This document shows positions 5,335 to 54,364 of a stretch of DNA of 64,000 nt, one piece after another (within the stretch, counting starts at the first letter, position 1; each line of letters opens with the position of its first letter). The position numbers and the translations under genes were made by a program. The stretch covers positions 1-64,000 of the forward strand of contig SJOL01004855.1 in the NCBI GenBank assembly GCA_004794785.1, written 5' to 3'. The stretch is from Opisthorchis felineus (Eukaryota > Platyhelminthes > Trematoda > Opisthorchiida > Opisthorchiidae). The notes beneath the pieces were generated by a model. That model was not told where the DNA came from, did not search any database, and saw nothing but the letters and a program-made list of their open reading frames with translations.

Positions 5335-5445
5335 GAATTCAGTCGGTACCGAAAAGTCAAGAACTACCAAGAAAATCTAGGGTTTTTCAAACTCGCAGCC
5401 CCTCGGCCGGTAGCTGCGTTCGATCAGGTTGTGGACCACAGTTTT
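5335..5445 (-). mobile_element. S2 SINE relic
   Basis: The minus strand has a tRNA-like run (ctaccggccgaggggctgcg, then agtttgaaaaaccctag) followed by a decayed tail. It abuts the repeat-A copy at 5435. Confidence 0.5.
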
Positions 5446-17561: not shown

Positions 17562-17597
17562 TGACCAGAATGCAAAGTCATGAACAACCCCGACAGC
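17562..17597 (+). CDS. Candidate 36-nt micro-exon of the VAL gene
   Basis: It is flanked by ctaattcctctcaactggacag and cgtaagta, both good splice signals. Only phase 1 is open; phases 0 and 2 each hit a stop. In phase 1 it encodes [11 protein letters not shown], a polar Gln-rich peptide like those of the other micro-exons. The last base C joins CT of 27574 to make a Pro codon. The following intron would be about 10 kb and would contain the CTGA microsatellite, the Ty3 relic and the large LINE. Confidence 0.5.
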
Positions 17598-20500
17598 GTA
17601 AGTAGCGTTTTCACGAGTACTTCTCAATCTGTTCAATCTGTTTTGATAAATCAAATAACCGTATTTTTAAGTCCTAATTTAAATTAGACGCGCGGTTCAT
17701 AGGTTGACGTGCTGAGAGAATTCCAGGGAAATATATTGCACATAACTTTCAGAACGTTAGCAAAAATGTATTTTTAGTGGGACCGTTTGTTCAGGGGTAT
17801 GATTATTCATGCAGTATACAGTGAGCCTCCGAAAAAGAGGATAACAAGGGGAAGACCGCGTTGTGCATTGTTCCCTTCGCACAGTGGATCTCCTGACGAA
17901 AGTGTGCAGGATTAGGTAAAGCTACCGACGAACCAGGTGAATCACCGTCATTTTGTTTCATTTAGCAACGTTTTCTGGCAAACATAAAAGACCAGGGTTC
18001 ATAATTTGGTCTACCGATGGGTATGTTAATCCTCCACTTCGAAAAGAACTGCACTCGCCAGTCTCAGTTTGACAAACTTACAGGGTCACTTTGAGAACAA
18101 TCCACAAGAACGTACTCTCTCATTCACGGTATACGAATCCGTGATATAACTCCCTCTGAAAATGGGTAATTGACCAAGTGACACAAGAGTTCTACATTTC
18201 TGTGGAGGTTTCTGTTCTTGTTGTTGATTGTAGTGGTGTGGGTCGGAGCGGTTAGGTTCGAGGCATCCACAAAAACATATTATATCGGCATGCATGCAGT
18301 TGCGCTACCCACAGAAACAACCGATCCTGTAATTTCACCAACCCCAATTTCAACTTATCGTCGAGAAATGAACCTTCGCCGCATCAGAGAGTATCTACGA
18401 GCGTGCAGCAGACAAGATGCTGCGTTGTTACTGCGATTGGATATGCCATGAATAGAAAAAATGCAGATTTTTACAAGATGAGAAATTCAAATCGTCAAAG
18501 TTGTGGAACGGGAAATAATGAAAGAAATAAACTTTATAAAACTATTACTATTTTGATTGGATCACCAAAATGGTTCGAGGGCCCTCAGTTCGGCATCATC
18601 TGTTGAGTGAGCTAAAGAGGAAGTTCATTCTCACTAGGAATGACCCAGTTCTGAGAGACATCAGTTATCGGTTCCCTTGCTATTTAGGCTGCGAAAACAA
18701 CAACATCGTCCGTGTCCTTCAGGATTCGCTCTTACTGTCTGCCTTTCTTCCACTGTTTCAAACACTCTGTTATCTGACTACAAGTTTTGTCCAGCGTGGG
18801 CTTGAGCGTTTTCAGTGTTTCCACTTTACAGCCGTCCCCAGACTTAATATCGTATGTATCCAGGGGATGAACTCAAATCCGAGTCTAAAATCCATTTTAA
18901 AAAATTGCAGAACCTTTCTTGGCATTTTTTGTTTGCCAATCTGTTCCATTCAAAAGACCTCCATGTAAAATATGTCACGTGCGCTTGGTTTTGAGTGAAT
19001 GTGGACTCTTCTTGGAAGATGTGCGACAACTTAGCGCAATTTTACGTCAAGCATAAAAGTATCCCTTAATCTGTCTGCGCCAACCGTGTACTTAAGAGGA
19101 AACCCGCTTCAAACATCGAGAGTTTTGGGTGATTCGCCATTGTCCTTTTTTGTGAAAAGAATCAAATTTATGCAGAGTAGATAAAACCGATCACAAGGGC
19201 GACTCATGGATAACGAGAACGGCAGGTCTGAACCAAAGGTTCTAGGATGTTTTGTGCAGACTGACATGAAGATTGAGGGTTACTCGTAGGCCAGAAATAT
19301 TCATCTAGAGATCACAGTTTATATGTAGATGGGAGCAGCATTTTCAACATCCTTAGACCGATGCATTTGGGGATGACAATGTGTTCTTGAGAGTAATTTC
19401 CACAAACCTAATTCCCAAGAAATCCCAACTTCATACGGAACCCATCTCACTCAGCAGAAATGATATAAACATTATTTCAATAAGACCAAAATACCTATCT
19501 GCATTTGTCCTCATTTTTAAGTAATTATTATTGATCGTCGCTGAAAAAGGACGTTATTATGACACCTCCAGAAGAGAATCGCTTGGCAGATTCCGCGGAT
19601 TCCTGTTGCAGATTCCTACAACAAACGAATGGTGAACCTGAAAGATATGATCCTGTCATGATACAAGCAGTGACCATGTATCAAAGCTACTGCTATCTGA
19701 CTGCTAGCTGTCAGTCTGCTTTTTCGGATAAGCACCGATGAGCTGATTCGGCCATGGCCTCCATTAATCTCCCCATCCCTGGTGAACGAAGCTGTAGTAG
19801 ATTCAGCAGACTGATTCAGACTGACTGACTGACTGACTGACTGACTGACTGACTGACTGACTGACTGACTGACTGACTGACTGACTGACTGACTGACTGA
19901 CTGACTGACTGACTGACTGACTGACTGACTGACTGACTGACTGACTGACTGACTGACTGACTGACTGACTGACTGACTGACTGACTGACTGACTGACTGA
20001 CTGACTGACTGACTGACTGACTGACTGACTGACTGACTGACTGACTGACTGACTGACTGACTGACTGACTGACTGACTGACTGACTGACTGACTGACTGA
20101 CTGACTGACTGACTGACTGACTGACTGACTGACTGACTGACTGACTGACTGACTGACTGACTGACTGACTGACTGACTGACTGACTGACTGACTGACTGA
20201 CTGTCTGACTGACTGGGATGAATCGTACGAGATTCCGGTAGCAGTCGCTCTCGCTTTATGTTGATCAGCACTACTGACCCGATGGTTTGCAGTATGTGTT
20301 AACTGGGAAAGAAGTCGCGATTTTTTCATACAAACCGAGTGAGCATGGCTGGATAAGATTGTGGGGTTCAGTCGCGTAGGCCGCGGCATCTTGGTACCCA
20401 TCGAACACAGACAGCAGATCCTTTGCGAAAGCAAAGATTGCAGGCCGTACCAGCACAACTACAATGTCGCCATGCGTATTTTACTACTTAATGAATTTAA

Positions 20501-26500: not shown

Positions 26501-29500
26501 GTGCCCAATTCAGAGTGACGAGAGTAGAGAGGTGGCCAACCCTTGAGCTGGTAGAGGAGTATGAAAGAGATTGCGGAAAACGTGTGTGATGTCGGTGGGA
26601 ATCGTTTTCCAGGATGGGGACTACGTTGGAGACGATGCAAGTTATGGCTGCCAATCAATGTCAGTGGCGTTTGAGTTGCCAGATTCTATCCCGATCGCCT
26701 GGATGAGTAACAGGAAGTTTGGGCTTTCAAAAAAATCATGGTTGTATGGAAGCCAACCATCAGTGCTGAACACTGAAGTCATACCGTCGATGATGATGAT
26801 GACAGAGTTTAGCAAAATCGGGAGGGTAATGCTTGTGCCTAAGGAGCCCCAAATAGGAAGAAACCGGTCCTGGGTTGTCGAATGTGCTTCAGCAACCTTA
26901 CGAGTAGTGCCTAGTCAGGAAACGATAAAAATTTTCCATAATATGTCACACTTAAGTTTACTCTGCTGAAAATATTCATTTTTTTCTCACAGTGACATAT
27001 CACCATGGCGGACCACCACCAACCTCATCGTATTATTCATGTGAGTCCGAACTCCTAATTCTTCTTTACGAAATTCTCTCTAAGTAAATCGATCACGCGA
27101 GTTTTTCGCTTGGCTCAAGTTGAAATTTTTGGTCCGATTGAGGTGTATATGAAACCTGATTACACATAAACCAATAAAAGATTTCTCCATATCCCAGAAA
27201 TTTACGGAATCAGCGCTAATTCAATAGTAGTTTACCACGTGATTTGTGTGTTTGTGGAGCAAACGAGTCACGTGATCTAGTGAGTGGTCGCTGCATACCT
27301 AGCACGAGCCAAAAGTTCTGTTGGGACAATTCCGGACAAATTACACTGAAAATCGTGGAGAATGTGAAAAGTAGTTTTGGTCTGTCCGAATTATCAACAT
27401 ATCCTCAGGGGAGATTCCACTTGTGCGGATCCGTTAGGTCATATGGGCTGGACAGATGTTCACGAAGAAAGGTTTACATAAATCTTCCCAAGTATTCTGC
27501 ATTCTAGTGAAATGCTTTTCAAATATCATGCCAAAACGGAATTGTGCGCATGTTGTTTGTTTGAAAATTCCAGCTGCTCAAAATGCGTATCAATGTAAGT
27601 TGCATGTTTATGGCAGAACATTGGACTGTAATATCAACCTTAGCTCTGAATATAACTTGACCTCGTGATAATTCCCCCATTCACTTGCTCACTTCGCCTG
27701 TGTACTTTTAACCCCCACTTGTTTTGCTCATTTGTACCTGCCACTCACTTTGCCGAAAAAGCGGTCCCGTCCGCCACTTGTTTATTATCATGTGTCTGAG
27801 TGAATTTGCGCAGCTGACCTACCTACCCATGCGCGTTCGTGTCCCGTTTGCTGAGCCTGGCTCGACTTGTTTTCCCATGAGTTCCGTGTGATCGCACCGC
27901 CAATGAGAATCACGAGACCGTCGTCGGAAAGGATGACCGCAACCCACACTACTGAGCCAACATTCCGCTCGCCGTTGTTTGGTGTGCGGACGTTGACACT
28001 GCACTGTGCCGGTCAGTTTAGAGTAGCAGAAGTAGAGAGGTGACCAACCGTTGACCTGCAAGAGGGGTATGAAGGACATTACGAAACGTATGAGTGCTGT
28101 CGTTGCTACTCGCCTTCCAGGATGGGGGCCGCGTGATCCTCACTGCGCCTAGTTGGAGACGCTGCAAGATATGACTGCCAACCGAAGTCAGTGACGATCT
28201 TGTTGTCAGTTTCTATCCAGATTGCCTGAATGAGTGTCTGGATGTGTAGGCACCTCGGAATGATTGTAGTACGCTGGCACTAAGTCACTTCCCCGTCCAC
28301 CTTTATCCTTTTCTTCACAATAAGGCTTTCAAATAAATCATATTTGTAAGGCAGCGAACCATCGGTGTTGAACACTGATATCATTGACAGATAGGTTGAC
28401 AGATCAAACACATCTTTAAGTAGCTTATTGTGAACAGTGATCACTCCGAAACCTGGACCGGTTGTCGACTTCTTAAATTAGTTGGTTAATTTGATTTCGA
28501 ATGTCTCATCACCAATCAGAGTGAACTCATCAGTGCACCGTGTGGATGCAGCGCGCACATGGGTTGATACAGTGTCTACGCACCGAGATTGACTGACCAA
28601 TCATTGACCATTCGGATGAGTCTTCCTATTGGCCAAAAAACTATTCATGTTCTCACTACAGCGAGGGGCGATCGTCAGCACCTTCGCCGCCACCTCCACT
28701 ACCACCACCGCCAACCTCATCGTATTATTCATGAGAGTCCGAACTCCTAAGTCTTCTCTGCACACAGCATTCAACAAATAAATTATGCCACTAAAGAAGA
28801 TGGTGATGATGATTTGATCTAACTGCTTCAGCTCACAACATTATCCCGTAACCTCAGCGGTTGTGAGCTAGGGAGTGTCATGCTTTCAGTCAATTGGAAA
28901 ATGTTTGGGACCGATTGGGTAGTCATCGTTTCAGAGAGGTTTGGTAAACAATCGGTAGATTTTTTGCTAGGCAACGTTTCGCTTTTGACACAAAAGCTTC
29001 GTCAGTCCAACTGAGTAAGTAAGCAGGTTGATCTGGTTTTAAGGCAGTCAGGGAACCAATCCGCAGTATTTCTTATGCCTATGCGACTTGCTCAGTGCTG
29101 GGTGTCGGTCTGATGTTCCTGTTTGATGGTTAGTGAGGATGAGTAACATTTACGATAGATTGGTTAGGTGGGATTGTCTTAATGTTGAAACCGGATTTTG
29201 CGGCCCTACTTTTTCGGTCTAGGACATCTTGATGGAATATTCCTCTTGAGGATCGTTCACAGATTTTGTTCGCCTCGTGTCATCTCGGCTGATCTAAGGA
29301 CAAGCTTGCCAGTTCCACGCCCTCTATTCTATTCACGCTGGGATGCTTGGCGGTTTCCACCGCCTCGGCCACCAGTCGCTGTGGTGTGAATCTTAGTCCC
29401 CGACTCAGAATGCCCACATTCTCCAAATCTATCCAGTGCATGCTCTGCCACTGCCGAATCTTGGCTATCGCATGATATTCACCTACGTTCCTCGGTGGTC

Positions 29501-32500
29501 TGTTAATGTATCGCTTATGCTCACGATTCTGGTGTGCAATTTCCTGGCTGTCTGACCTATATAAACCCTCGTACAGTCGCTACATTTTATGTTGTATACA
29601 CAGTTCCTAGTCCTATCAACCGGATCTTTTCCAGATAAGCCCCGCCAAAAAATTAACCCCAGCCACTCAAAAAAGATTAGAAAAAAAGAGGATATGAAAT
29701 TTGTACTTTTAGTTTTTATTGAAGAGGGTGAAATTTGCATGAAAAGGTCCGTTTTTCGGTACCTTCGCCTCCAAACAAACTCACACAAGTAGCTGTTCAC
29801 TAAAGATCGGTGTGTGCCGCATTGGCGTTTATTCTGCATCTTGTAGACAGGCCAAAGAGATTCGATGGTTTGCAAAAAACGTATTGCCGTCTCCTTGTCA
29901 TGAACGAGAGTTGAAAGCGTCAGAAGTTTCATTTAAGGTTTTACGTCCGAACGGAGAAAATGTTTGCACAAAATGAGCCTAGATGTGGATAAGGAATTGT
30001 TTTCATCAAAAATAGGTCTAGGTTGTGTGCGTACATTAAATTGGAGCTGGCAAAAAGTGGCGGGGATTAACTTTTCGCGCATGCACTTTTTACACTAGTG
30101 GCGGGGCTTATCTGGAAAAGATCCGACGATCCTTCAACTGCACCTAAACCGAGCGTAAAGTCTTTCCTTTCTGGAATGCTAGTCTAATGTTGGCCGTATT
30201 CAGTACCCTTCTGATGACTTCAGATGTCTCTGTTTTGTATGGAATGACTATTGCTCCGATCCACTCCTTTATTGGGCCTTGGTGTTGGCGCCGATACCCC
30301 TCTTAGTTGCCGCCTAATTAAACCCACTGGGTATCCGCTATCTTGAAGTCATTTTTTACCTCAGGTTGTGCTGCTCTTCGGTCGACCTCCTCTGTGCACA
30401 GTGCCCTTACTCTCCTAAACATCTTTGAGACCATGCTAGTGTATACTCCCTTTTGTTGTGCTGGGTCATCTCGTGTCATCTCGGCTGATTTGAAACCGCT
30501 CTCCACGCGCTTGTCAGTTCTACGCCCTCTATTCCATTCACGCTTCTGACCGAATTGACTCCCCAGAGAAAGGTTGCCCAGCAAAAAATCAACAAATTGT
30601 CTATCAGAACACTGTAAAAATATGTTATGATGTTATGGTGCCAATAGTGATCAAAATGTGAGGAAAATACGGATGTTGAAAACTTAGACCAGAATCATAG
30701 ATATCAGTAAAAGCTAACTAAGGAACTACTTGGGGTCTTGTGTCCACAAGCTTTGTCGAAAATATTTTTACCAGTTATAGAATTAGTGGATGGTTGCGGG
30801 ATTTGTAGAATTCGCGTTCACATTAATCTCGTTCGCACAGTCCTCCTCTTCCTCTTATCGTTCTGCCGTAATTGTTCACGTGAGCTTACACCAGAGAGAC
30901 CCAGTGGACTCGAGGTTCACTTCTACAACAGAGCTACTCAGCAACGTCTATCGTTGGTCGTACGTCTGGCGAGCGTGTTCACGCTATTCCACGAGTGTGC
31001 GCTGGACGCACCTGAAGTATTGCGCGTGAACACGTAATGGTGTGTTCACGGTCGATCCATGTGATGAAACTCGCATCCAGTGCTTCTCTCACCTGTATGG
31101 CTTGAACTCACCGGAGTTATTGCACCAGGACAGAAAGAGGACTGTTCAAATGAGACTAACGTGAATTTCAATTGCACGCATCCCGCAACAACCACCACAA
31201 ATAGCTCATCACAATCACCAGGCTTATCAGAATGCCAGGATGTTTCGAACACTTGTCTGCAAATGAAAGGTCAGCATCCATATTTTACGTTTCTTTGAAT
31301 TACTACTGAGATGAGGACTGGATAACTCATTTGCTGCAGCAGAAACACATCAGTCCGTATCTTGGGGCCTTAAATGATGTTTGTGAATAGATCCTTCGTG
31401 GAACAAACTAAGATGCAATTCGCTATTTTGTCCACCTAATTTAGCACAACAAGAGCGAAGCTACCGCGGAATTGAGCGTAAGTTTTCTATTAGTATATCG
31501 AAACAAAATCATTTTTGACATTCAGCCATAAGGATATTGACCAACCCGTGTGTTTCATCCATGTGAACAATTGGGACCGTTGTGTGAGATCTAGCAGCCG
31601 ATTCCGTCATAACCGAATGCGAGTTCCTAAAAGTGCAATTTGTTCTAAGTCCAACTGGGACAGTTTCTCGTGTGTCGCATGACCGATTCATCCATTCATG
31701 AAATCCAATCAGGTCAAACCGCTGTACCCAACCTAGGGAGTGTGTTTGAGAGAGTATTAATACAAAAGCGCGAATTTCTCTTCAAACACGAACCGTGTGG
31801 GAGCAATGAATCATTTGTCCCCATTCTTCGAATAACTGGCTAGTGGTTCTGTAGCAAGGTGTTCATCAGTGTGACACTTGGAAGTTGAATTGATGCACCT
31901 CAATCGATCGGTGTTCTTGTATTGCCACAACATCGTAACCCCACACCCTGAGAGATTTACACTGCCCTTGGATGCCCACGGCTCACTAACATGTCTACCG
32001 GCGATTGTGTTCTACTGGAATCTCATCTCTGTCTCATCCTTATCGGGGATCAGCAGCAGCACCCCACGACTGTCCTGCGAAAATCCCCAAATCTACTCAT
32101 ACCATCGACAAAATATGGGTCGCTCATGGGAGAAATTATTCTCACTTATCACGAACGAAGCTCCAATTTGATAAGTCCTCAGTGGATAAGCCGGTCAACT
32201 CGTGACCACGTTGTGACCATTTCCTCAATCACATATGAATGGTGCTATGTCCTGTCTAAATACAATTTCATCACTGTGTTGATCAGCTGCTCGTGGCCGG
32301 ACGGCAGGTTGCGAGTTCGAATCCCCCTAGCAATTGGTGAGTTGCGCACTGGTGATTATACCGAAGAAGAATAAAATAACTGTTCGAAGTCAGTTGTTTC
32401 CACCTACCACACAGTCATCTACAGGAGCATAATGAGCACCGTAACTAGGGTCAAACCAGCCCTAAATCGCACATTTCTTCGGCCTTTGCGCTGATACTCG

Positions 32501-35500
32501 CGCAATCCCCTTCCTCCGACCAGCCGTACTATGCGAATTCTGTCTCAACCTGTTCACCAGACATTATCGGTTATCTCCCGAACATACTGACTCTCTTCTG
32601 CGCCGCTATATCTGCAGAGGGTCCCGCGTTTGCAAACGCGGGAGAACAGAATCACAAATTGAGGTGACATCTTTAGTGCAAGTTTGGGTGTCATCCCGAT
32701 TGGTGATGAATCATTTGGAAGCTAATTGCCCAGCTTGGTGATCAGATCAGCGGCCACCTGACCAATCACCCATGAACGCACCCGAGCTACCGATATTCCG
32801 GTACAGCTCACCACATATCCTAAGATGGCCTTGGACCGAAAGTTCAAATGAGGGCTGGACTTTGATACAAGGTGTACTACATCCATACTGCAGCATTCTA
32901 TATCCAAAGCCTTTCCCTAAAGTTATGGTAGATCACCCCATTTGGGGCTGATTCCTCGCGCGGATTTTTTTCGAACCCATTTGACTGTATACTTCTATCC
33001 ATTTGAATCAAAAGAACCGAAGTAATTGAAAAACTCCGTCCAATTCTTCAGATAGTCATTTGGGAAGCTGGTATGGTCCTTAGACTGCGAGTTAGTGGGC
33101 TTGCTTCCACAATGACAAGGCCACGTACACATGTGCCATTGATGACCAGAATGATGGTGGGGAGAACACATTCGCATTCGTGTTGATCGGGTAATTCGAC
33201 TAAGGTTAAGCATGTATGCTTAGTGTCTCCATCCACATTGGCGCATATCCGTTGCTCTTATGAATACAAGCCAAGAGTTGACCGAAACATTAGTTCAATG
33301 ATGTTTTTGATGAGTCTCCGCTTCACCCAGCCAGTATGTACTTCCTACCTATGCTGCCCGTCCACTGGACGTTCCTAATCTATGGTCGAAGCGCGAGTAC
33401 TATGCACCTGCATTGAGATAATGTAGGATGGCTGGCGTGGTTCCTGGTTTTTGTTCACACTGGCTCCACTACTCTCATGTGACTGTCCTGTGTACCATGC
33501 TGGCATACAAGACTGAAAAGCACCCCAGTGGTTTGCTTCACTTAATGGTCGTTAATCGACGGAACACCCATAAATCTAGATTGATCAACATCCTTGCTAT
33601 CCGAGTAATTATTCCGGCTGCTGAAGTTCCTACCCTCTAAGATGTCCTTCATGCTCTTCGAGATATCAATGCTCCAGGTAAATTCCAGTTGGCATTAATG
33701 TTGCGGTATTTCAGTTCTTTTATCTATATGTGCATCTGCACAATCGTTACAGTGCGGTCAGAACGGAATCACGTGACACTACACAACTTGACTGGTAGAC
33801 AGTCGCGCCATATCCTACCCAGTTAAGGATGAATCATTCTGCTGTTCAGCTAGTGTTCACCTACTGGAAGTAAAGTTGCCGTTTTGAATCTCTATCGAGT
33901 CACGTGAGATTCACGCTCCTCATTATTCCGAACAAGGACGAAAAAGCGGTACAGCGATTCTCGGATTTTTCAGCATAGTTTGATTTCGCTTGCTTGTTCT
34001 GTGTTTGTTGTCACTCATGGGTGGCTGTGCACCGCAATCCAATCAGCTCAACTTATTATCTGCTCAATTTACGCATTTTTTCAGAATCTGAGAACGAACC
34101 AATTGGAAAAACTCGCTTTTGTAAGTGAGATCCCTCAGTGATTGCTTGGAACACATGACTGAATCCAGTTGGACTTCTGACTACATCAAACTTTGAGATC
34201 AAACAGGGAATTCTCACTCCAAGACATACCACTCCTTAGACTCTCAATTTTAATTTGGAAGCGCTTCACTAAGCCTTGTCGCCCTTCGCCACTTGAATGG
34301 CTTTTACATGTGTGTTTCTATTGAAGCTATATTTCGTTTCGGTGAAAGAACACAAAGGGAACCGTTCAAGGGTATAGGGATTCATTAGCTGTGTACAAAC
34401 GGCTCGGTCATACTACCCTTCTGCCAACCCTCTCAGGAGACGACGTACCTACCATTTGAATTGGCGATTTTTCCCCTAACTCGTTGTGGAATTTTTCAGA
34501 CAAGTTGACGGATGTGAATAGTCTCTGACGTTATACTTTACCAATTATCGCTTCTCACGGGGAAGTTTTTGAGTTAACTGCAAAGCTGTTTTTTTAACCT
34601 CATAAATGTCCACACAACTGTGCTTTTATCATTTTCCTGCTCTTTACTTTTTCCAGTTAATGCGGAACACAATAGATGTAAGTTTTAGTTCTTAGGCTCT
34701 ACTCCGTGTTGGTGCTAACAACTTATCTGAAGGTGAGTAGCTTGGGTAGGCAACCAAACTCAGCGAGTACATATGACGCTTTGAGTGTTAAGAAAGATTT
34801 GTGCCTCGTGAAAATATCGGAAACACCTCTGGTTCAAATACTTAATGTCACATAGGGTATTCCATGACCGTTTGCTCTCTGGATGTATCAGATGTGAACT
34901 CCTCATTTGCTGAAATCCGAAAGTAGCGGAAAAACGTTTTAACTGCACCTGTCCGACTATTAACAACACCGGATGGACTGTCGAGTCTCGATCTCTTCTA
35001 GTCAATATACACCTATTGCCTATGAAAACAAAAGGAAGCAATGGGTAGAAATGAAACAATGATAGACGGAGTCTGTGAAAATTGTGATCAATTAAATGAG
35101 TGTGCAGTGGTCACGTGAGAAAACCATAAAAGCCTCAGTGCATGTGTATACGCCTACTAAGTACACAAACATAGGTTATCTGAGCAAATGCAATGGCACC
35201 CCTCGAGCTCTATTGACCAGAATAAGAGACTGCGAAAATATTGACGATCGTGAACTCGTGTTCTGATTTGGAAGAGGAATCCATCATGTGAGTGAAACCA
35301 CAAACAATGCCAAGCAGCAAGTGTCGCAAAACTTTCTGCTTGGCTAAATTTAGCCCGGATATCAATCAAGATTTATCATAACTCAGAAAATACTTGGAAA
35401 GTCCAAATTCAGCAAGTGAAATTCCCGAAAATCGAACTGCCTGTGATTGGTATTTTTAGAACCCGTCCACAGATGTGTGTTGGTTTGCATCGACATAGTA

Positions 35501-38500
35501 TTCGACTGCATAGTCTCAACAGTTGATATGTTCAGTGATTCGATACATCTAGTGGTATGGACCGTGGCAGTCTTTCTCCCAAAATCCTTCGAAATATGCC
35601 CTGTACTCTGATGCCATAATGGGGAGCTAAACCAAATGATCGAATGCGCAAGTGTTTTGTGTGAAAGTTGTCCATCTTGCAGCATTCTGATCGAAAACGT
35701 AGGACCCCCATTGATGGGCACTAGTAATCTCCACGCCCTGTGTAGAAGACAGCTGATCAAGAACGTGCTCCCGTTCCCCACCATATGTGAAAGTCCATTC
35801 CCGTAATTATAATCCCCTGATCCGAGGAACTGAAACTCTCTTGTTTTAATGAACTATTTTTATAACTTTTACCGATTTTGGTCGGACATTGTGTTTTTGT
35901 GGTCACTCGCTGTCGGCATCTGTTGTCTTGTGACGATATCGATTTTAAGGCGAGGTGAACTGCGATTTATCCTCAGGCTGGTATTTGTGCCGCCCTATTT
36001 TGTATCTTCTATGGTATCCGCAAGAGAGAAACTGTTGAGGTTTGTTGAATATGTGTATTATTATCCTTGCAATAGTACCGTGATTCCAGAAATCGGGTTT
36101 CTTGGTCCGTTTTTGTGGATTGGCACGCGTCACTCAAGTTCAGAAGGCAGATAACCGTAACACCCTGTGCACATGATTACCCAAAATATGACAACTGTGG
36201 GACCAAAAAGAGTGACGTTTAGACAGACTCCACTTGTTAGCGAATGGGAAATTCTGAACAAGGACTTTCATGTTGCTGTACGGATAGTAGCTCAAATTGA
36301 GCTACTTTCTTAACAAAAGATAAAACAACTACTTTTACCAACAAAAATATCATTTTCAAGGCCAGCGTTCACTGCTTCGTTTCGTTCCACAGGTGGTTTC
36401 GGCGCTCACACCAGTCTGAAACATGTAAAGTTTTTTCTCCCGCTCCCTCGCAAATTTATTTCTAAAGGTGGACCGTGAAATTTATCGGTAGTTAAATGCC
36501 TTTTAAAGAACTTTAAAGGGCCAGGGCGACTGATCCTACTCCATGAAATTTTACGTCTTACGGATAGCGATTATCCTCGTTACTAAAATTAGCTACACTG
36601 GACACAAAAGGTACTACAACTCTGCATTTAATTGTTTCGGTAGTCCGAACCAACCTACGACCGTGATCGGCTCGTGCTCGTAAAATTGAACTGGACTAGC
36701 GAAATACATTCATTTTGACGGGAGACTAACCTGGAACCCAGCCGAATCTCACGTTTATGATGTTTTCAAGCAACTGCATTTGCTGCACCCGGCAGCCTCA
36801 TGTTTCAGTTGGTACGACATTCGAGATATCACGATACATGTATAGACTTAATACACTACTCGCAAGGTTGCTAAAGACTCTTCGACAACCCACGACCATT
36901 TTCGCCCTTCTTGGGGCTCATCAGATAGGCGCAGTCCCCGAGTTTCTGTCAACCTGGACAAGAATCAGAACTGCTAGTGAGCATCTCGTGTTTCCGTTTT
37001 TTTTCTATTGGTTTGCATCGAGGCTTGACTTAGTACTGAGATTCAATATACATGAATGCGTCATTCCGAAGTGGATCCCACACAGCAGTCGTACCAATAA
37101 AATAGTTCTGTTGAGTCTTACAGAGTCCATCAGTTCCATACAAATATACGCGAGCTCAAGTGACCCAACAACCTTTTCACATTGGCAATGTTTTGGAATA
37201 TAGGTAGCTCGGGTGCGCTGCTTGGTTGTTGGTCTGTTCGCCGAGCTTGGCAGTTGGATTGCAAACGTTTCATCACCAATCGAGGTGACATCATCAGTGC
37301 GGGGTTGAGTGGGTGAATTCCTCCTCTTCTGCCTGTGCTTATATGGCTTCTAAACAGCATCTGGCAGCTCTGAAGGCGGTCTTCGCGTAGTTTGATTGGT
37401 TCCCTGTGAATCTGGGTTGGTCTTCATCTCTTGTGTTTGGTTGGTTCGTTGGGCGCATTCAATTCGACAGTTCTGTCCTATGTGGCTCAGAGTCCCGTGA
37501 CTGTGTAGTTCTTTTGCTCGTAACGGTTGATAGACTGGGTCNATCAAACTACGCGAAGACCACCTTCAGAGCTGCCAGATGCTGTTTAGAAGCCATATAA
37601 GCACAGGCAGAAGAGGAGGAATTCACCCACTCAACCCCGCACTGATGATGTCACCTCGATTGGTGATGAAACGTTTGCAATCCAACTGCCAAGCTCGGCG
37701 AACAGACCAACAACCAATCCTTTTCACATCTCTGTCTATTGTCATCCCCGCTCCTGGTGAGCTGTCGCATCTGGGCGTATGGGTTTGGGCGGTATGCGGT
37801 GGGCGCGTTGGCCGCGGATTAATTAGCGCAGCCGGCTGACTTTCATTGTGTATTGTCTCGACTTCAACTCACACAGACTGAAACTCACAGGCGCACTGAA
37901 TATTCATCAAGTTGCGTTGGATTGTTGATCCATCCGTTGTATCGATTTTTTCAACGCCTTTTCGTCGACAATATTTGCTCACTATACGTGCCAGCGGATC
38001 ACTCTTATCTTCACAACCAGACTAGTTGCTTTTTTCAGACCAAAAGAAAATACCAAGGCATTGTGTTTCATGTACCAATTATATAGGGTGGTAATAAATG
38101 ATGTTTGAATATTCATTTTTTCGTTGCTTTTCAGGGTCAACAGTACATTATTATGGTAAGGTTTATAAATGGTGTATCTTAGTTACCAAGTGGTGGTTAA
38201 AAGATTACTCGGTGATTTCTCTCACATGGGTAACGTAGCTTCCACTCAAAGTTGTTTGAGCCAACCACCACACCCTTACCTGATGAATCTTGAAGGGTCT
38301 TAAAGCTGGAGGGCTGCTTGTTAGGCTTGATGTTTTGTCCCATCAGCGTCACCATTCGTATGATCCGAAGTTTGTGAAAAACGAAACCTCTGGCCTGTTG
38401 ACAATGTATTTGGCATCGCACCAAAATATAACCTAATTAAACTGAGTGTGAACACACTAAGTAAAAGTCGGCTCTCGGACTGAGTTGCTCTTGATGACTA

Positions 38501-41500
38501 TCGAACAAAAAGCGAGCGCAACCAAAAGATATATATTTCGTGTTGGCAATCTGAGGAGATTTTGGAACTTTCGATGAAGGTGCTGTCCTGTAGGTGAAAC
38601 CCATCTATGTGAAATGCTGGCTTCGCCTGCAGGACCGGTCCCACCTACAAGCTAAGAGTTAACCAGAAGGAAGGATGATTCGCACGGGATGTAGTGTTCC
38701 ATTGACGATCCTTTTGGCTTGCCTTACGGTTGTAGATCGATTACTGGAACTAGTCAACAGCTAGCCGGTTTGTCTGCCAGACCTCCGGGGATTGTGGTGT
38801 CATCATGGATTTCCGCCAGAGTTAGATTTGTTTGTGAATTCGGTGTGGCTGTCGCTGGTTTCATCACTATGTGGGTGGCGCGTATACAGAGGTGTGCATT
38901 GGGATGGATTCTATATGGGAAAAACAAAACAGCAAGATACGGACTTCGCATCTCTGAAACACGGTACTGAGGTAGATTCGCCAACTACGGCCCTAGCAGA
39001 TAGAAGCTAAAAAGCACGCTACCCAACTGCCTGGTGTCAGTGCAGATCAGATATGCTGTCTAGTAAATGATGGGCGAAATATTACAGCTGAGTAAAAAGG
39101 TGACTCAGGCTTAAGCAAAAAGATCAAACAGCGTTTTCAATCTTTCTTCGTCGAAAGGTATCAGAAGGTTGTTGGGAACAACCAGAAAAGTAACGTGAAT
39201 TTGGGCCAGGTTGTTCCAACATAAAGAAGCAACAGTTCACTTCTCACATCCCTTTCTGGGACAAGACATTTTGGTCACCACTGAAAGTGGAAAGAAACAA
39301 GAAGTCCATAACATAGTTTGTTGTTTATATCCAACAAACCAGAACTGTTTTAAGTCAATAAAATTGGTTGGCTTCCAGTAAGCACCAACCGTACCATCGA
39401 TAAGCAGATTAGTTTTGCGTTGCTTTCTACTTGGAGCAATGTGACTTCATTGACTACGAAACGTTTAAGTAAGAATTGTTGAACGAACATCCCTAGCATG
39501 CAGTGTTCAACCCAGCGCGAACATTCAGACAATTGCGTTTCACAACCTTGAATCAGTCATCAATACTCCAACTGTGTGAACTCATAGTGAGTATTTGGGT
39601 ATGTTCTAACACCTCGTATCAACATCCCTCATACAGGCAGTGAAAACTCGCGCGGGCTACCACAAGCACTTGAGATAGCCGTTGGTCGTACCACGGTTCA
39701 GTCCTATCGTGCACACACTTTGAACAGCTCACTTGATCGATGCTAATTGCTGCGTTGATCCGCCCAAATAGTTCAGCATGGCCTATCTGGTGTTACCAGA
39801 GCTGTTGGACAGATTGCGTCCGCAACAGCTGAAGTAGTTGCAACTCGATTACTACAACCGACGCTTCATCACCAAAAGCACCACATGAAACCGTTGTGCC
39901 TGCAAACAAAGTGACCCTAACAATGATCAATCAGTGGCTCACAAGTTTGCAGCACGGTTTCACTAACTGAGTTCGTCGAACGATAATCTGGCAACCTTTC
40001 CCTTCCCTTAAACCATTATTTACTTGTGGCCGACAGTAAGACGCGCGTCCATCTTTGTATGTGTCCGTGTCTCTCCCCAAAGTGTCAATTCACTGAGACA
40101 TCCGGAGTCTTGTCCACGCAAATTGTCTTTGTTTGGCCGTGTCCGTTATGTACCATTGATTTGTCTTGCATCCTGTTTATGGGCCACGCTTGTCGATCTG
40201 TCATAAATGTCATACCTCCAGTCTCGCAGCCGGTTGCGTCATCCTGTTCTCCGAACCTGCCAGATAGCTAAGCAGGCGATCTCCAGTTAAGACCTCGCTT
40301 ATCAATGTCCTGGTCTGATGAGAATATATCGACATCATATGGCTGCGATCCGTTTACTCGAAATAAGCATGAACCAACCTACCTAATATGGATCTGCTGA
40401 GATTAGAAATGGCGTGGGTTGAGGACTTTTGACTGGTATATTGAACGTCAACGATCTAGGCTCCAACCGTCTGTACCATGGACTCGCCCGATTACTCTGG
40501 ATCAATTTTTATGCTGTTTCGTCCATGCAGCTCATTTCTACACGGCAAAACAGTTCCTGGATAAACATAATTTCTACAGAAGAAGATTGCTTCATGGGAC
40601 AGAACCTGATGGCTTCAGGGCCAAGGAGATGCCTGATCTGGTAAGATCCTTTTTTCAATGCAGTTACACCAGCCATTTGAGCTTTCGCTCACTAGGTATA
40701 TGATAAAAATAGCAGCCTTTTGCTGGGAATTCCCACTCTAAAAGGCTATAACATGTAGTAGGTACATCGTGTGGGATTCCCTATCCCATGGTCTTTATTT
40801 TTCTTGGATGTCTTACACAGGTTTCTCAACATGAAGATTCTGTTCAGCCTAAAGACGATTATAAAACAAAATTATGAGCATCAGGTCTTTCTGGAGTAAT
40901 CGAGTAAAAATACACACCACCCCCTACTGGAGCACTAATTTGATTGCTCCAGGTTGTTTACACATCCGATCACTAGAAGCGAACCGAAATTAATTTCACC
41001 GAAACTATGAGGTTTTCGAAGTGGAGAATTTTACAAGGAGTTATTCCAGTCAGGCTGCATATTTCAGTGGGATGTTGCTCACAGCTGTTTGTTTGATTCA
41101 GCAAATTTCCAAGGTGACAAAACACCACCGATTCGTATACAACTAATAGTTTACCAATAAATCACACCATCGAAACGTTGAAAATTTTAACGTTCCTAGG
41201 TACTCTGAAGATTGGTACTAACTTTCTCATAATTTCTAATTCAAATCCTATCAAGGTGGATACGTAAATAAGTTATCGATCCGTTCTAATCGTTCCATGT
41301 AACAAATTAGATGAATTGGTTCATAGAAGTTCGGCAGGACACTGTTCTTTGCAACGCTCACTTGCGCCGAGTGTAATATTTGAAGAGGGCTTGATGCGTT
41401 GTGCAAAAGGACGCTACTGTGCACGGTTTCCGCCACCGGGCTTGTGCTAATATTCAGGACACAATAGGCCATGCTCTACTGAAGGATCTTCCTCACTAGA

Positions 41501-44500: not shown

Positions 44501-44624
44501 AGGTGTGGGATCAAAAGCTCTACGAGGACGCCAAAAGACATGCCCAAATATGCATATTTGAACACAACCCTGAGGATGAAGTTTATGGAGAAAACTTGGC
44601 TTTAAGTTATGGAAAAATTGCTGA
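17562..44624 (+). CDS. Partial VAL (CAP/SCP domain) gene with micro-exon-encoded N-terminal extension
   Basis: Composite model of eight exons: 17562-17597, 27574-27594, 31445-31477, 34085-34120, 34657-34677, 38135-38155, 40531-40640 and 44503-44624. The last two encode the first half of a CAP/SCP domain, the fold of secreted venom-allergen-like proteins that parasitic worms release at the host interface. The six upstream pieces are 21-36 nt, each a multiple of three, flanked by pyrimidine-AG and GT(A/G)AG-type sites, and open in the phase needed by the CAP exon. Junction codons at successive joins give Pro, Ser, Gln, Phe, Trp and Ala. The joined extension is about 56 residues, rich in Gln, Asn, Glu and Arg, with no stop. 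The start Met, the signal peptide and the second CAP half (the CGHYTQ region) were not found. Short symmetric exons are typical of flatworm micro-exon genes and of variable exons in schistosome VAL6. The CAP part is firm; the chain of micro-exons is inference. Confidence 0.6.
17598..19818. other. Putative intron, nothing recognised
   Basis: A 132-residue frame at 18570-18968 has no visible domain and no splice context that fits the VAL series. Confidence 0.45.
19819..20215. repeat. (CTGA)n tetranucleotide microsatellite, about 99 units
   Basis: It is near-perfect over about 397 bases, with one clear substitution near the right end (ctgtctg at 20201-20207). On the minus strand the repeat has no stop in any frame, which creates 151- and 280-residue SQSV frames that are artefacts. 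It lies in a putative 10-kb VAL intron. Confidence 0.97.
21150..21357 (+). mobile_element. Short internal fragment of the same LINE family
   Basis: The frame at 21171-21359 reads [25 protein letters not shown] and [13 protein letters not shown], matching the stretch at 26030-26165 of the larger LINE. Both ends are cut off. The antisense frame over it is a shadow. Confidence 0.75.
21520..22870 (-). mobile_element. Ty3-type LTR retrotransposon relic: 3' end of pol (integrase)
   Basis: Read on the minus strand from 22867, a 177-codon frame carries the integrase zinc-binding region ([14 protein letters not shown] followed by [16 protein letters not shown] and a final C) and the start of the catalytic core ([20 protein letters not shown]). 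Both are typical of Ty3-like flatworm elements. Core and C-terminal pieces continue in other frames: QAER and [16 protein letters not shown] around 22140-22210, [11 protein letters not shown] near 22070-22100, [12 protein letters not shown] near 21920-21960, and [15 protein letters not shown] near 21820-21860. There are at least two frameshifts and a stop, so the copy is dead. Reverse transcriptase, RNase H and LTRs were not recognised, so it is truncated at the 5' side. Confidence 0.85.
22871..24169. other. Between Ty3 relic and LINE; nothing firm
   Basis: It could hold the eroded 5' part of the Ty3 element or a LINE 5' region, but no motif is readable. Confidence 0.4.
24170..26808 (+). mobile_element. 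Decayed non-LTR retrotransposon (RTE-like), endonuclease to 3' tail
   Basis: Pieces occur in the expected order. An apurinic-type endonuclease relic lies at about 24180-24850, with [15 protein letters not shown] near 24400 and AGELNA near 24510. Reverse transcriptase traces follow from about 25150, including [15 protein letters not shown] at 25480, [16 protein letters not shown] at 25600 and FVMDEV then [14 protein letters not shown] at 25790-25915 (the catalytic YADD is YADE). The region after the RT is open at 25931-26518, with [19 protein letters not shown] and [19 protein letters not shown]. The 3' end is a short GAT repeat at about 26788-26802, a tail style common in RTE elements. Many stops and frameshifts are present, so it is inactive. 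It lies inside a putative VAL intron. The clade is uncertain. Confidence 0.8.
27000..27065 (+). repeat. Repeat E fragment (partner 28690-28760)
   Basis: caacctcatcgtattattca is followed by gagtccgaactcctaa and then a cttct stretch, shared with 28705-28760. Possibly LINE-derived, since both lie just after LINE 3' ends. Confidence 0.55.
27574..27594 (+). CDS. Candidate 21-nt micro-exon of the VAL gene
   Basis: The acceptor is tgtttgaaaattccag and the donor is gtaagt, a perfect match to the consensus. In phase 1 it encodes AQNAYQ plus split codons at both ends (Pro upstream, Ser downstream). The length is a multiple of three, so inclusion or skipping would not change the reading frame. Confidence 0.55.
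27660..28020 (+). repeat. Repeat B, copy 3, joined to LINE 3' end
   Basis: It starts ataattcccccattcacttg, includes cacaccgccaatgag-like and ccaacattccgctcgccgtt motifs, and stops where LINE sequence begins at about 28020. Confidence 0.65.
28020..28390 (+). mobile_element. LINE 3' end fragment
   Basis: From 28020 (agagtagcagaagtagagag) the sequence tracks 26520-26775 of the larger LINE: the motif ttccaggatggg, then gttggagacg, then ctatccagattgcctgaatg, and finally atcggtgttgaacactgat. It is joined directly to the end of a repeat-B copy at 27660-28020. Confidence 0.7.
28480..28550 (-). repeat. R1-type hammerhead motif fragment
   Basis: The minus strand reads gcactgatgagttcactctg, then attggtgatgagacattcg. 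CTGATGA is intact and GAAAC is changed to GAGAC. Confidence 0.5.
28690..28760 (+). repeat. Repeat E fragment
   Basis: It has the same core as 27000-27065, preceded here by a ccacctccactaccaccacc simple stretch. Confidence 0.55.
28796..28860 (+). repeat. Retroelement 3' end shared with 61265-61320
   Basis: gatgatgatttgatctaact, then gcttcagctcacaacattat and cccgtaacctcagcg, matched on the opposite strand at 61268-61318. It fits the end of a GAT-tailed retroelement. Confidence 0.65.
28965..29010 (-). ncRNA. Hammerhead-like ribozyme motif in the Penelope terminal region
   Basis: On the minus strand: CTGACGA, one extra A, then the stem-II arms GCTTTTG/CAAAAGC with loop TGT, then GAAAC. Stem II is a perfect 7-bp hairpin. 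The single extra base after CUGANGA is also seen in the 37.6-kb repeat. Stem I and the cleavage triplet are not clear, so activity is uncertain. Confidence 0.6.
29627..30119. mobile_element. Small terminal-inverted-repeat element (MITE-like) inserted in the Penelope relic
   Basis: Twenty-one-base perfect terminal inverted repeats start ttttccagataagccccgcc at 29627-29647 and are mirrored at 30099-30119. Both ends abut GATC, which could be a 4-bp target duplication (it is palindromic, so it might also belong to the repeat). Subterminal ccccagcc/ggcgggg blocks extend the symmetry. Removing about 493 bases brings the two halves of the Penelope reading frame together. No transposase is encoded, so it is non-autonomous. 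The open frame spanning it is part element, part host. Confidence 0.75.
30790..31055 (-). mobile_element. S1 SINE copy
   Basis: Read from 31050 down, it carries the 5' part, a degraded tRNA-like head (gtggaatagcgtgaacacgc), a much decayed ribozyme region (tgctgagtagctctg) and the body to atcccgcaacc at about 30795. Body similarity to 60760-60870 is clear. Confidence 0.65.
31060..31205 (+). mobile_element. S1 SINE copy lacking its head, head to head with 30790-31055
   Basis: It starts at gatgaaactcgcatccagtgc (the 3' half of the hammerhead) and continues with actcaccggagttattgcacc, ggacagaaagaggac and atcccgcaac, tracking the 60.7-kb SINE body. Its lost 5' part ends inside the ribozyme, as at 58330. 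Confidence 0.68.
31445..31477 (+). CDS. Candidate 33-nt micro-exon of the VAL gene
   Basis: The acceptor ends ccacctaatttag and the donor is gtaagttt. In phase 1 it encodes [10 protein letters not shown], again polar and Gln/Glu-rich. It lies just downstream of a head-to-head SINE pair but outside its recognisable sequence. Confidence 0.52.
32225..32385 (+). mobile_element. S2 SINE relic
   Basis: It shows the 5' part (gtgctatgtcctgtctaaa), the tRNA-like head with ggttgcgagttcgaatcccc (32308-32327), and the start of the ribozyme (gcgcactggtgatta) before the similarity ends. Confidence 0.6.
32640..32830 (+). repeat. R1 repeat fragment
   Basis: gtcatcccgattggtgatga is followed by agcttggtgatcagatcagc and gaacgcacccgagctaccg, matching the outer flank of the 37.2-kb arm (cgcacccgagctacctat). 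The ribozyme core is eroded. Confidence 0.5.
34085..34120 (+). CDS. Candidate 36-nt micro-exon of the VAL gene
   Basis: The acceptor tacgcattttttcag and the donor gtaagtga are both strong. In phase 1 it encodes [11 protein letters not shown]. About 16 bases of it (ctgagaacgaaccaat) also occur at 11218, so part of this segment could be repeat-derived; that lowers confidence. Confidence 0.48.
34657..34677 (+). CDS. Candidate 21-nt micro-exon of the VAL gene
   Basis: It has the best acceptor of the set (cctgctctttactttttccag) and a gtaagt donor. In phase 1 it encodes NAEHNR flanked by split Phe and Trp codons. It sits only 536 bases after the previous micro-exon. Confidence 0.55.
36700..36965 (+). 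repeat. Repeat C, unit in b-a order
   Basis: Block b (gacgggagactaacctggaa, atctcacgtttatgatgttt) precedes block a (aatacactactcgcaaggtt, ggcgcagtccccgagtttct), the order expected for a cut tandem array. The 148-residue frame here is repeat-derived. Confidence 0.55.
37222..37717. repeat. 175-bp inverted repeat made of two head-to-head hammerhead repeats (R1)
   Basis: Arms 37222-37396 and 37543-37717 are reverse complements with one mismatch seen (ggcgg against ggtgg). The spacer is 146 bases and its last base is an N (37542). Each arm contains CTGATGATGTCACC, then GGTGATGAAACGTTTGC, a hammerhead-like core. The two 46-residue frames starting [12 protein letters not shown] are identical copies of this non-coding repeat and are not genes. 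Confidence 0.85.
37640..37717 (+). ncRNA. Hammerhead-like motif in R1 repeat
   Basis: CTGATGA is followed by one extra T, stem-II arms GTCACC/GGTGAT (closed by a G-U pair) with loop TCGATT, then GAAACGTTTGC. The minus-strand arm at 37222-37310 carries the same motif. The cleavage site and stem I are not evident. Confidence 0.5.
38135..38155 (+). CDS. Candidate 21-nt micro-exon of the VAL gene
   Basis: The acceptor is ttttttcgttgcttttcag and the donor is gtaagg. In phase 1 it encodes STVHYY. Its final G plus the CT that opens the CAP exon at 40531 makes an Ala codon, linking the micro-exon series to the CAP domain in frame. Confidence 0.55.
38200..40530. other. Putative VAL intron, nothing recognised
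   Basis: Short frames only. The sequence near 39.4 kb has an isolated cgaaacgttt but no paired ribozyme core. Confidence 0.45.
40531..40640 (+). CDS. VAL gene, CAP-domain exon 1 (HN..YR helix)
   Basis: This 110-nt exon starts after a pyrimidine-rich stretch ending in gcag and stops at a gtaaga donor. It carries two leading bases plus 36 codons. The frame reads through [15 protein letters not shown] and ends EMPDL, the opening helix of CAP/SCP domains (consensus L..HN..R followed by P....M..L). It joins exactly in phase 0 to the exon at 44503, whose first residues VWD complete the conserved L.W motif. That an independent exon 3.9 kb away continues the domain in frame is the strongest evidence in the window for a functional host gene. 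Reading into the flanking intron loses the similarity, so the boundaries look correct. The 5' edge could shift slightly if another AG is used. Confidence 0.82.
40641..44502. other. VAL intron between the two CAP exons
   Basis: 3.86 kb bounded by gtaaga and ttttttcag. No transposon domain seen. Small frames inside have no support. Confidence 0.6.
44503..44624 (+). CDS. VAL gene, CAP-domain exon 2 (FEHN / GENLA)
   Basis: This 122-nt exon follows a strong acceptor (gctttttttcag) and ends before gtgagtga. It encodes 40 codons plus two bases. It opens [15 protein letters not shown], then a Cys, then FEHN, PEDEV and YGENLA. These match the second helix and the conserved core of CAP/SCP domains; the His of FEHN and the Glu of GEN correspond to residues of the cation-binding CAP cavity. 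There are no stops, frameshifts or unusual substitutions, unlike the decayed transposons around it, which argues for selection. The next exon must supply one base first. The best candidate is 48172-48196. The part carrying the second conserved His (the CGHYTQ motif) was not found. Confidence 0.85.
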
Positions 44625-50905: not shown

Positions 50906-50914
50906 AGGTACATC

Positions 50915-53975: not shown

Positions 53976-54364
53976 TGGGTGATTCGGATTTGATTTAAGC
54001 AATGAACCCGAGTAAAAGTCACTCTCTTTTTAATGGGCTACAAGGGGAAAAGAAGCAATTTGGCAATTCCCTCCCCCCAAACCCGTTTATCTCAGTGTCT
54101 CATATCCACAACCTTCATTCAGCAAAAATACTGCTGCCCATGAAAGTGGTGACGAGTTCGACTCAGCCTGATCCACTTGGACTATGCACACTATCGGGCG
54201 CATTTACAGAGTTCTTGTAGACCGGACATCATGGGGTTTCACTGCCTTGTATCTTATTGGCCAACCGAATAATGAGTGTAGACAAATACGATATGCAATG
54301 GGAAGCGTACGTCGGCCGTTACAATATCTGATTGGAAAGCACTCATGCTGTGTATAATGGTCAG

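What the first reader, a model, noticed from the sequence alone, without database searches (positions are those of the whole stretch)
17562..44624. VAL gene with a micro-exon-encoded N-terminal extension
Two exons 3.9 kb apart join in frame into the N-terminal half of a CAP domain (seen directly). Six upstream pieces of 36, 21, 33, 36, 21 and 21 nt have consensus splice sites, are all multiples of three, and are all open in the single phase that exon 40531 demands. The joined peptide is uniformly polar (Gln, Asn, Glu, Arg), as expected for one disordered segment. Known micro-exon genes in flatworms make variable secreted proteins, and schistosome VAL6 has small exons in its C-terminal extension. 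A string of symmetric micro-exons before the CAP domain would be a different arrangement, allowing many isoforms of a host-facing protein by exon skipping.
Basis: partly seen in the sequence, partly recalled or inferred. Interest (0 to 1): 0.9.

Follow-up and report, generated by a model that had tools for sequence, protein, structure and literature searches.

The report
Fluke VAL gene with micro-exon tail
A cat liver fluke gene of the venom-allergen-like family starts with a string of tiny, skippable exons where most sister genes examined have a secretion signal, giving the protein a variable front end in a layout that appears new for this family.

Summary
The gene is real. The window encodes, letter for letter, two deposited isoforms (193 and 223 aa) of Opisthorchis felineus CRM22_002805: a start exon, five symmetric small exons (48, 33, 36, 21, 21 nt), four exons carrying the CAP domain and two alternative last exons. 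One (17562) is the 3' end of the start exon. The second, given without coordinates, is probably 27574-27594 and is in neither isoform.

The shorter isoform skips the 33-, 36- and one 21-nt exon, so cassette skipping before the CAP domain is in deposited models. Introns 1-6 are all phase 1; introns 7-10 are 0/2/0/2, the pattern of all 23 group-1 schistosome VALs. In 7 of 10 comparable first CAP exons of this genome, Met plus a hydrophobic stretch sits in that same exon. Here it is absent and the micro-exon module stands in its place.

So this is a group-1-like VAL core with a micro-exon front, opposite in end and group to SmVAL6. 'Host-facing' is unproven: the deposited start shows no signal peptide. 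No RNA reads were seen.

The parts
17428..17434 (+). TATAAAA 100 nt upstream of the start codon; candidate core promoter for exon 1
   Evidence: TATAAAA lies 60-150 nt upstream of 10 of 1089 ATGs on the + strand of the window (this one included); suggestive only
17528..17597 (+). Exon 1, coding start [23 protein letters not shown] + 1 nt; ends phase 1; in-frame stop upstream at 17489; no visible signal peptide
26993..27040 (+).
27574..27594 (+).
   Evidence: rank 8 of 803
28704..28757 (+). Partial copy of exon 2 and its donor region, 94% identical over 54 nt, with GA where the donor has GT: apparently a dead exon copy
31445..31477 (+). Exon 3, 33 nt, symmetric phase 1-1; skipped in the 193-aa isoform
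34085..34120 (+). Exon 4, 36 nt, symmetric phase 1-1; skipped in the 193-aa isoform
34657..34677 (+). Exon 5, 21 nt, symmetric phase 1-1; in both isoforms
38135..38155 (+). Exon 6, 21 nt, symmetric phase 1-1; skipped in the 193-aa isoform
40531..40640 (+). Exon 7, first CAP exon, enters in phase 1, leaves in phase 0; no in-frame Met in the 42 open codons upstream
44503..44624 (+). Exon 8, CAP exon (VWDQKL...GENLAL), leaves in phase 2
47517..47568 (+). Exon 9, CAP exon (DPVESWYEGRKTSGHYDQ), leaves in phase 0
48867..48988 (+). Exon 10, CAP exon (VVCATTRRVGC...VCRYMPP), leaves in phase 2
50724..50760 (+). Alternative last exon 11a (KYVEHEPYEKI stop), AATAAA at 50834; used by the 223-aa isoform
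53780..53816 (+). Alternative last exon 11b (LFVNHEAYEKV stop), AATAAA at 53904; used by the 193-aa isoform
50012..50909 (+). First copy of a tandem duplication that carries the last exon; second copy 53095-53980, 80% identical

Best explanation
This is one gene of Opisthorchis felineus for a single-domain CAP (SCP/TAPS, venom-allergen-like) protein. SHOWN from sequence and deposited models: exons 7-11 have the exon layout of a group-1 VAL (five exons, intron phases 0/2/0/2). In front stand a start exon and five small exons that all begin and end in phase 1, so any of them can be left out without disturbing the CAP frame. Two deposited isoforms differ by leaving out exons 3, 4 and 6 and by taking one or the other of two duplicated last exons. 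INFERRED: in 7 of 10 first CAP exons examined in this genome the signal peptide is coded in the same exon as the start of the CAP domain. Here that exon has no such start and instead receives a spliced-on, polar, probably disordered tail of 46 or 76 residues. By exon skipping the fluke varies the length and charge of this tail while keeping the CAP fold. The tail most likely sets where the protein goes and what it binds, with the CAP domain as a constant platform. With the deposited start the protein should not enter the classical secretory route, so a role inside the worm or at its tegument, as proposed for SmVAL6, is likelier than direct secretion.
For: Both deposited isoforms are reproduced exactly from the window. 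CAP in both at 48 bits, cut-off 21.1. Introns 1-6 phase 1 (6 of 6), introns 7-10 phases 0/2/0/2, as in 23 of 23 group-1 SmVALs and unlike 5 of 5 group-2 SmVALs (1/1) in Tables 1 and 2 of PMC2270263 (section 5 read). Best-scoring solved structures are secreted-type CAP proteins (ASP-1, venom allergen 3, GLIPR1; that these are extracellular is recalled). Sister genes in the same assembly start exons at the same two places: 19 of 19 exons checked begin after AG in phase 0, four before VWD or its equivalent and 15 before (V)VW or its equivalent; 9 of 9 sister first CAP exons end in phase 0. Seven of ten first CAP exons examined carry Met plus a hydrophobic stretch in the same exon (L026, L027, L028; L041, L045, L047, L049); exon 7 and its two nearest relatives (L033, L037) do not. 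The extension is 72% polar/Pro/Gly, has no Cys and lies on the disordered side of the charge-hydropathy line. The genome paper says consensus models were updated with alternatively spliced variants by PASA, with RNA-seq of metacercariae and adults (PMC6530080, passages and section 25).
Against: No reads were seen; support for each junction is taken from the paper's general method. Two distinct isoforms only were seen (the clusters count 2 and 4 member sequences; members not read). Counterparts of exons 2-6 were not recognised in 20 kb upstream of either nearest relative, so the module may be unique to this gene or too diverged. A signal-peptide exon upstream of exon 1 or beyond the contig start cannot be excluded: the window starts at base 1 of its contig, and the nearest relative has a signal-peptide-like segment with a phase-1 donor 15.7 kb upstream (L051). 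The disorder index separates weakly: the CAP part itself sits on the boundary (0.422 against 0.421). The CAP domain is diverged: an 11-residue gap after WYEG, VVW is VVC, five Cys instead of six, and one Glu of the recalled active-site set is one residue off.
Confidence: 0.72

Rival explanations
1. The deposited 5' end is incomplete or only one of several. A signal-peptide exon ending in phase 1 lies further upstream and splices into exon 2 or later, so the protein is secreted and the micro-exons follow a cleaved signal peptide, as in schistosome micro-exon genes.
For: Every acceptor from exon 2 to exon 7 takes phase 1. The CAP core has the exon layout of the secreted, group-1 type. The nearest relatives L033 and L037 also have a phase-1 acceptor just before the CAP start. 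A signal-peptide-like segment with a phase-1 donor lies upstream of L033 (L051 4160-4232; none on the minus strand of the four stretches). The contig begins only 17.5 kb before exon 1.
Against: Both deposited isoforms start at exon 1, with an in-frame stop 13 codons upstream of its ATG and a TATAAAA 100 nt upstream. A scan of window 1-40530 found one weak candidate (37666) against two overlapping starts of one segment on the control strand.
Confidence: 0.22
2. The small exons are noise: weak exons spliced in occasionally, with no selected function, in long introns full of repeats.
For: 803 similar open segments exist in the region, and one opposite-strand segment scores as well as the real ones. 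No counterpart of exons 2-6 was recognised near the two nearest relatives. No orthologous protein was found.
Against: Three of the five have the three best splice-site scores of the region. Six consecutive phase-1 introns followed by an abrupt change to 0/2/0/2 at the CAP core are not expected of noise.
Confidence: 0.13
3. A micro-exon gene (MEG) of the schistosome kind that happens to carry a CAP domain.
For: A run of five small exons divisible by three, long introns, exon skipping.
Against: Micro-exons make up 5 of 11 coding exons, below the half required by the rule in PMC7653826 (passages). No visible signal peptide, which PMC10526429 calls constant in MEG proteins (passages). About two thirds of the 223-aa protein lies in the CAP-bearing exons.
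Confidence: 0.06

Closest known systems
SmVAL6 of Schistosoma mansoni (group-2 VAL with micro-exons)
   Same: CAP/VAL gene tens of kb long, with small exons in one phase that are skipped to give isoforms; no signal peptide (PMC2270263, passages and section 5; PMC7957364, passages). VAL-6 has been called a possible VAL-MEG composite (PMC4350168, passages).
   Different: In SmVAL6 the small exons lie 3' of the CAP exons and the core is group 2 (phases 1/1, without the six conserved Cys). Here they lie 5', the core has group-1 phases 0/2/0/2, and there are five; SmVAL6 has 38 exons, 17 of them under 20 bp.
Group-1 SmVALs and the sister group-1-like genes of this assembly
   Same: Five exons with intron phases 0/2/0/2; matching exon starts before VWD and (V)VW and matching phase-0 end of the first CAP exon; Cys in the CIFEH, VGC, FC and VCRY contexts as in GLIPR1.
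   Different: Most carry a signal peptide (21 of 23 group-1 SmVALs clearly, 2 doubtfully; 7 of the 9 sister first exons examined). Here the first CAP exon has no such start and accepts a phase-1 splice from small exons.
Schistosome micro-exon genes (MEGs)
   Same: Small exons divisible by three, long introns, exon skipping (PMC7653826 and PMC10526429, passages).
   Different: Micro-exons are under half of the exons, there is no visible signal peptide, and a CAP domain makes up most of the protein.
O. viverrini SCP/TAPS c962
   Same: Liver-fluke VAL with a 94-residue N-terminal peptide before the modelled CAP domain (PMC3284463, passages).
   Different: Its N-terminal peptide contains two Cys; the extension here has none. 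Its exon structure is not given in the passages seen. Sequences not compared.

Membership tests
CAP / SCP-TAPS superfamily (PF00188) | Pfam CAP profile above its cut-off | tested here: met
   48.2 and 48.6 bits, cut-off 21.1, profile 1-116 of 117
CAP / SCP-TAPS superfamily (PF00188) | Conserved two His and two Glu of the central cleft (set recalled) | tested here: inconclusive
   H134, E143 and H168 align with FxHN, GEN and GHY of relatives; the fourth, Glu in WYxE, is one residue off (E161) in both alignments
CAP / SCP-TAPS superfamily (PF00188) | CAP fold | tested here: inconclusive
   Two AlphaFold jobs gave mean pLDDT 29 and 37; too few relatives
Group-1 VAL | Intron phases 0/2/0/2 over five exons | tested here: met
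   Exons 7-11: phases 0,2,0,2 against 23 of 23 group-1 SmVALs
Group-1 VAL | Six conserved cysteines | tested here: not met
   Five Cys in all (130, 174, 182, 187, 207). Four line up with Cys of GLIPR1; the Cys before GHY is missing. The six positions of PMC2270263 were not aligned directly
Group-1 VAL | Signal peptide | tested here: not met
   Deposited start: best 10-residue hydropathy 0.81 against 1.55-2.91 in seven sister first exons whose Met I chose. No signal-peptide program available; an unseen 5' exon is possible
Group-2 VAL (SmVAL6 type) | Intron phases 1/1 in the CAP region | tested here: not met
   0/2/0/2
Micro-exon gene (rule of PMC7653826) | At least seven exons | tested here: met
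   11 coding exons in the 223-aa isoform
Micro-exon gene (rule of PMC7653826) | Run of at least four consecutive exons under 70 nt and divisible by three | tested here: met
   Exons 2-6, a run of five
[quoted passage not shown]
   5 of 11 coding exons
Micro-exon gene | N-terminal signal peptide | tested here: not met
   As above, with the same reservation
Alternative splicing of the micro-exons | Isoforms with and without individual small exons | tested here: met
   P0002 has exons 2-6; P0001 lacks 3, 4 and 6. These are deposited models; read-level support not tested

The most novel reading that the evidence does not exclude
A secreted-type (group-1) VAL gene lost its signal-peptide start and acquired a run of phase-1 micro-exons in its place, turning a constant secreted protein into a splice-variable one with a disordered front. 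Together with SmVAL6, where micro-exons joined the other end of the other VAL group, this means that flukes have fitted MEG-like exon strings to the CAP fold at least twice.
Probability: 0.45. Interest if true: 0.65.

Novelty: new variant of a known kind. Interest (0 to 1): 0.5.

Why it matters
VAL proteins and micro-exon genes are two well-known expanded or variable gene families of flukes, and SmVAL6 is the one gene known to me that combines them. A second combination, at the opposite end and on the other VAL group, would show that the CAP domain is a repeated platform for splice-made variation. It would make testable whether the variable tail controls where the protein goes.

Tried and rejected
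Pfam and PDB searches with single CAP exons were too short to score. Exon 7's top PDB hit was a CAP protein at E 0.08. Exon 8's four hits were all weak; one of them, 6any (E 0.96), is also among the CAP-type hits.

The idea that the stretch before exon 7 is a relic signal peptide (it translates to ...FLCCFVHAA) was dropped: its best hydropathy (1.55) lies within the range of the other ten acceptor tracts (0.44-2.23), as any pyrimidine tract would give.

Counterparts of exons 1-6 upstream of the two nearest relatives: none convincing in 20 kb each. One 7-residue match to exon 5 (L052 9462, RNTEHNR) is the only one of its strength besides exon 5 itself in 194,572 positions, but it has a poor donor and repeat-like surroundings, so it is not counted.

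Structure prediction failed, so no fold search was run. Protein searches for orthologues: 2 of 23 candidates passed, both this gene; 7 of 14 passed, the two isoforms plus five CAP proteins without organism name at 30-33% identity; proteins outside about 123-390 aa were not candidates. DeMarco 2010 is not held. Papers searched for this layout: each with a capped listing (10 to 20 rows; one search found none); no description of this gene or of N-terminal micro-exons in a VAL was seen in those listings or in the passages read.
Full report
WHAT IS THERE. A search with the 41-residue part around exon 44503-44624 found two proteins only, both 'hypothetical protein CRM22_002805 [Opisthorchis felineus]', 193 aa (P0001) and 223 aa (P0002), each 100% identical over 98% of the query and each with a CAP domain. 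Mapping their peptides on the window gave the exon boundaries. Joining those exons reproduces both proteins letter for letter. The window is base 1-64000 of a 291,220-base contig of a 630-Mb assembly. The protein database gives a contig of 294,731 bases for the same gene, so the two assemblies or their trimming may differ.

ANATOMY. Coding exons on the + strand: E1 17528-17597 (70 nt), E2 26993-27040 (48), E3 31445-31477 (33), E4 34085-34120 (36), E5 34657-34677 (21), E6 38135-38155 (21), E7 40531-40640 (110), E8 44503-44624 (122), E9 47517-47568 (52), E10 48867-48988 (122), E11a 50724-50760 or E11b 53780-53816. Introns run from 536 to 9395 nt. P0002 uses E1-E10 and E11a. P0001 uses E1, E2, E5, E7-E10 and E11b, so it skips E3, E4 and E6. 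The two last exons lie in a 0.9-kb tandem duplication, 80% identical, each followed by an AATAAA. They differ at 10 of 33 coding bases and 5 of 11 residues.

HOW GOOD WAS THE OBSERVATION. Four match E3, E4, E5 and E6. The first (start 17562) is the last 36 nt of the 70-nt coding part of E1. The second, 21 nt, is most likely 27574-27594, which has a fair acceptor and a gtaagt donor and ranks 8 of 803 candidates but is in neither isoform. E2 was missed. Symmetry and openness alone are weak evidence: 803 AG-GT segments of 15-60 nt meet them between 17600 and 40530, and 1174 on the opposite strand. A splice-site score (recalled metazoan preferences) puts the five real exons at ranks 1, 2, 3, 4 and 7 when only intronic donor positions are scored, and at 1, 2, 3, 9 and 16 with exon-side positions. 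On the opposite strand 4 of 1174 reach the lowest real score, and the best of them (12.2) is above the third real exon (11.7).

IS THE SPLICING REAL. [quoted passage not shown]). Isoforms differing by 21-36-nt exons are what such a transcript-based step would yield and what ab initio finders seldom do (my inference). No reads were examined here. The clusters of P0001 and P0002 count 2 and 4 member sequences; I saw only the two representatives.

THE CORE IS GROUP-1-LIKE. Introns 1-6 are all phase 1; introns 7-10 are 0, 2, 0, 2. In Tables 1 and 2 of Chalmers et al. 2008 (PMC2270263, section 5 read) all 23 group-1 SmVALs have 0/2/0/2 and all 5 group-2 SmVALs, including SmVAL6, have 1/1. The best of 17 solved-structure hits are ASP-1, venom allergen 3 and GLIPR1, with SmVAL4 further down; that these are secreted-type CAP proteins is recalled. 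Four Cys align with those of GLIPR1; the one before GHY is missing. With five Cys in all the six-Cys rule of group 1 is not met. In the same assembly, CAP exons of sister genes start at the same places: 19 of 19 exons checked begin right after AG in phase 0, four before VWD or its equivalent (L001, L010, L023, L024) and 15 before (V)VW or its equivalent. These 19 were picked because they looked group-1-like. Others in the same search (for example L002, L003, L006, L007, L014) start inside the HN..R motif and look group-2-like.

WHERE THE SIGNAL PEPTIDE WENT. For four sister genes the stretch upstream of the second CAP exon was fetched. Three (L026, L027, L028) show Met plus a hydrophobic stretch in the same exon as the CAP start; in L025 none was recognised. 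A search of the assembly with P0002 gave 21 matches, 6 to this gene's own exons and 15 elsewhere, 6 of them first CAP exons. Of these six, L041, L045, L047 and L049 have an upstream in-frame Met with a hydrophobic stretch (L049 the weakest), and L033 and L037 do not (L037 has an in-frame Met inside the exon but no hydrophobic stretch). That makes 7 of 10 first CAP exons with the signal in the exon, exon 7 being among the three without; L025 is not counted. The nine sister exons all end in phase 0. L033 and L037, the two nearest relatives (59% and 50% identical over the exon), have a phase-1 acceptor at the same place as exon 7. The exon-10 counterparts on their contigs have lost the conserved Trp (MVS, VVS; here VVC), while the seven other exon-10 matches keep it. 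The three genes therefore look like one divergent subfamily.

THE EXTENSION. 76 residues in P0002 and 46 in P0001 come wholly from E1-E6. In P0002 it is 72% polar, Pro or Gly against 59% in the CAP part, has no Cys, and lies on the disordered side of the charge-hydropathy boundary (0.363 against 0.418); the CAP part lies on its boundary (0.422 against 0.421), so the index separates weakly. No signal peptide is visible: best 10-residue hydropathy 0.81 against 1.55-2.91 in seven sister first exons. The start codon has an in-frame stop upstream at 17489 and a TATAAAA 100 nt upstream; 10 of 1089 ATGs in the window have one at 60-150 nt.

MECHANISM. Shown in deposited models: exon skipping that keeps the frame, and alternative last exons. 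Inferred: the variable tail alters localisation or partners while the CAP fold is constant. For SmVAL6 the published picture is a non-secreted protein tied to the tegument, which bound its two partners more strongly without a 73-residue part of its tail than with it (PMC7957364, passages). I take the same reading here at moderate confidence. The main rival is an unseen signal-peptide exon: all acceptors from E2 to E7 take phase 1, and L051 4160-4232, upstream of L033, looks like such an exon. In window 1-40530 one weak candidate was found on the + strand; on the control strand one segment with two overlapping starts.

WHAT DID NOT HELP. Structure prediction stayed below a mean pLDDT of 40. No counterparts of E1-E6 were recognised in 20 kb upstream of L033 or L037. 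No orthologue was found in the protein collection. No genome of Clonorchis or O. viverrini was searched.

PLACE AMONG THE KNOWN. It works like the variable tail of SmVAL6 but is built on the other VAL group's layout and at the other end. It is not a micro-exon gene by the rule of PMC7653826, because 5 of 11 coding exons is under half, and it lacks a visible signal peptide, which PMC10526429 calls constant. N-terminal extensions in liver-fluke VALs have a precedent in O. viverrini c962 (94 residues; PMC3284463, passages). I saw no paper on this gene or on N-terminal micro-exons in a VAL in the capped listings.

Noticed in passing
window 50012-50909 and 53095-53980: Tandem duplication around the last exon, 80% identical overall, but a 277-nt patch (50300-50576 / 53393-53669) is 97% identical, as if partly homogenised.
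   Followed up: partly
window 26506-27065 and 28014-28757: Collinear repeat pieces (74-84%) followed by a 94% copy of exon 2's end; the copy has GA where the donor has GT. A retroelement carrying along an exon (3' transduction) would fit but was not tested.
   Followed up: partly
window 37222-37396 and 37543-37717: Near-perfect inverted repeat (99.4% over 175 nt, 146-nt loop).
   Followed up: no
window 22337-22882 (-): Open frame with an integrase zinc-binding domain (Integrase_H2C2, E 1.2e-12): retroelement remnant inside intron 1.
   Followed up: no
window 19819-20215: (GACT)n array, 99 copies at 99% match, inside intron 1; open in three frames on the minus strand, so it is listed as long ORFs of Ser-Gln-Ser-Val repeats.
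   Followed up: no
window 5427-5750, 55363-55705, 58516-58861: Three copies of a ~340-nt repeat, two of them 93% identical and inverted.
   Followed up: no
G000 C951:70039, C951:76086, C495:123635, C495:127543 (L033, L039, L037, L043): Probably two sister VAL genes with a phase-1 first CAP exon and without the conserved Trp; what splices into them is unknown.
   Followed up: partly
L051 4160-4232: Signal-peptide-like open segment ending in a phase-1 donor, 15.7 kb upstream of the first CAP exon of L033.
   Followed up: no
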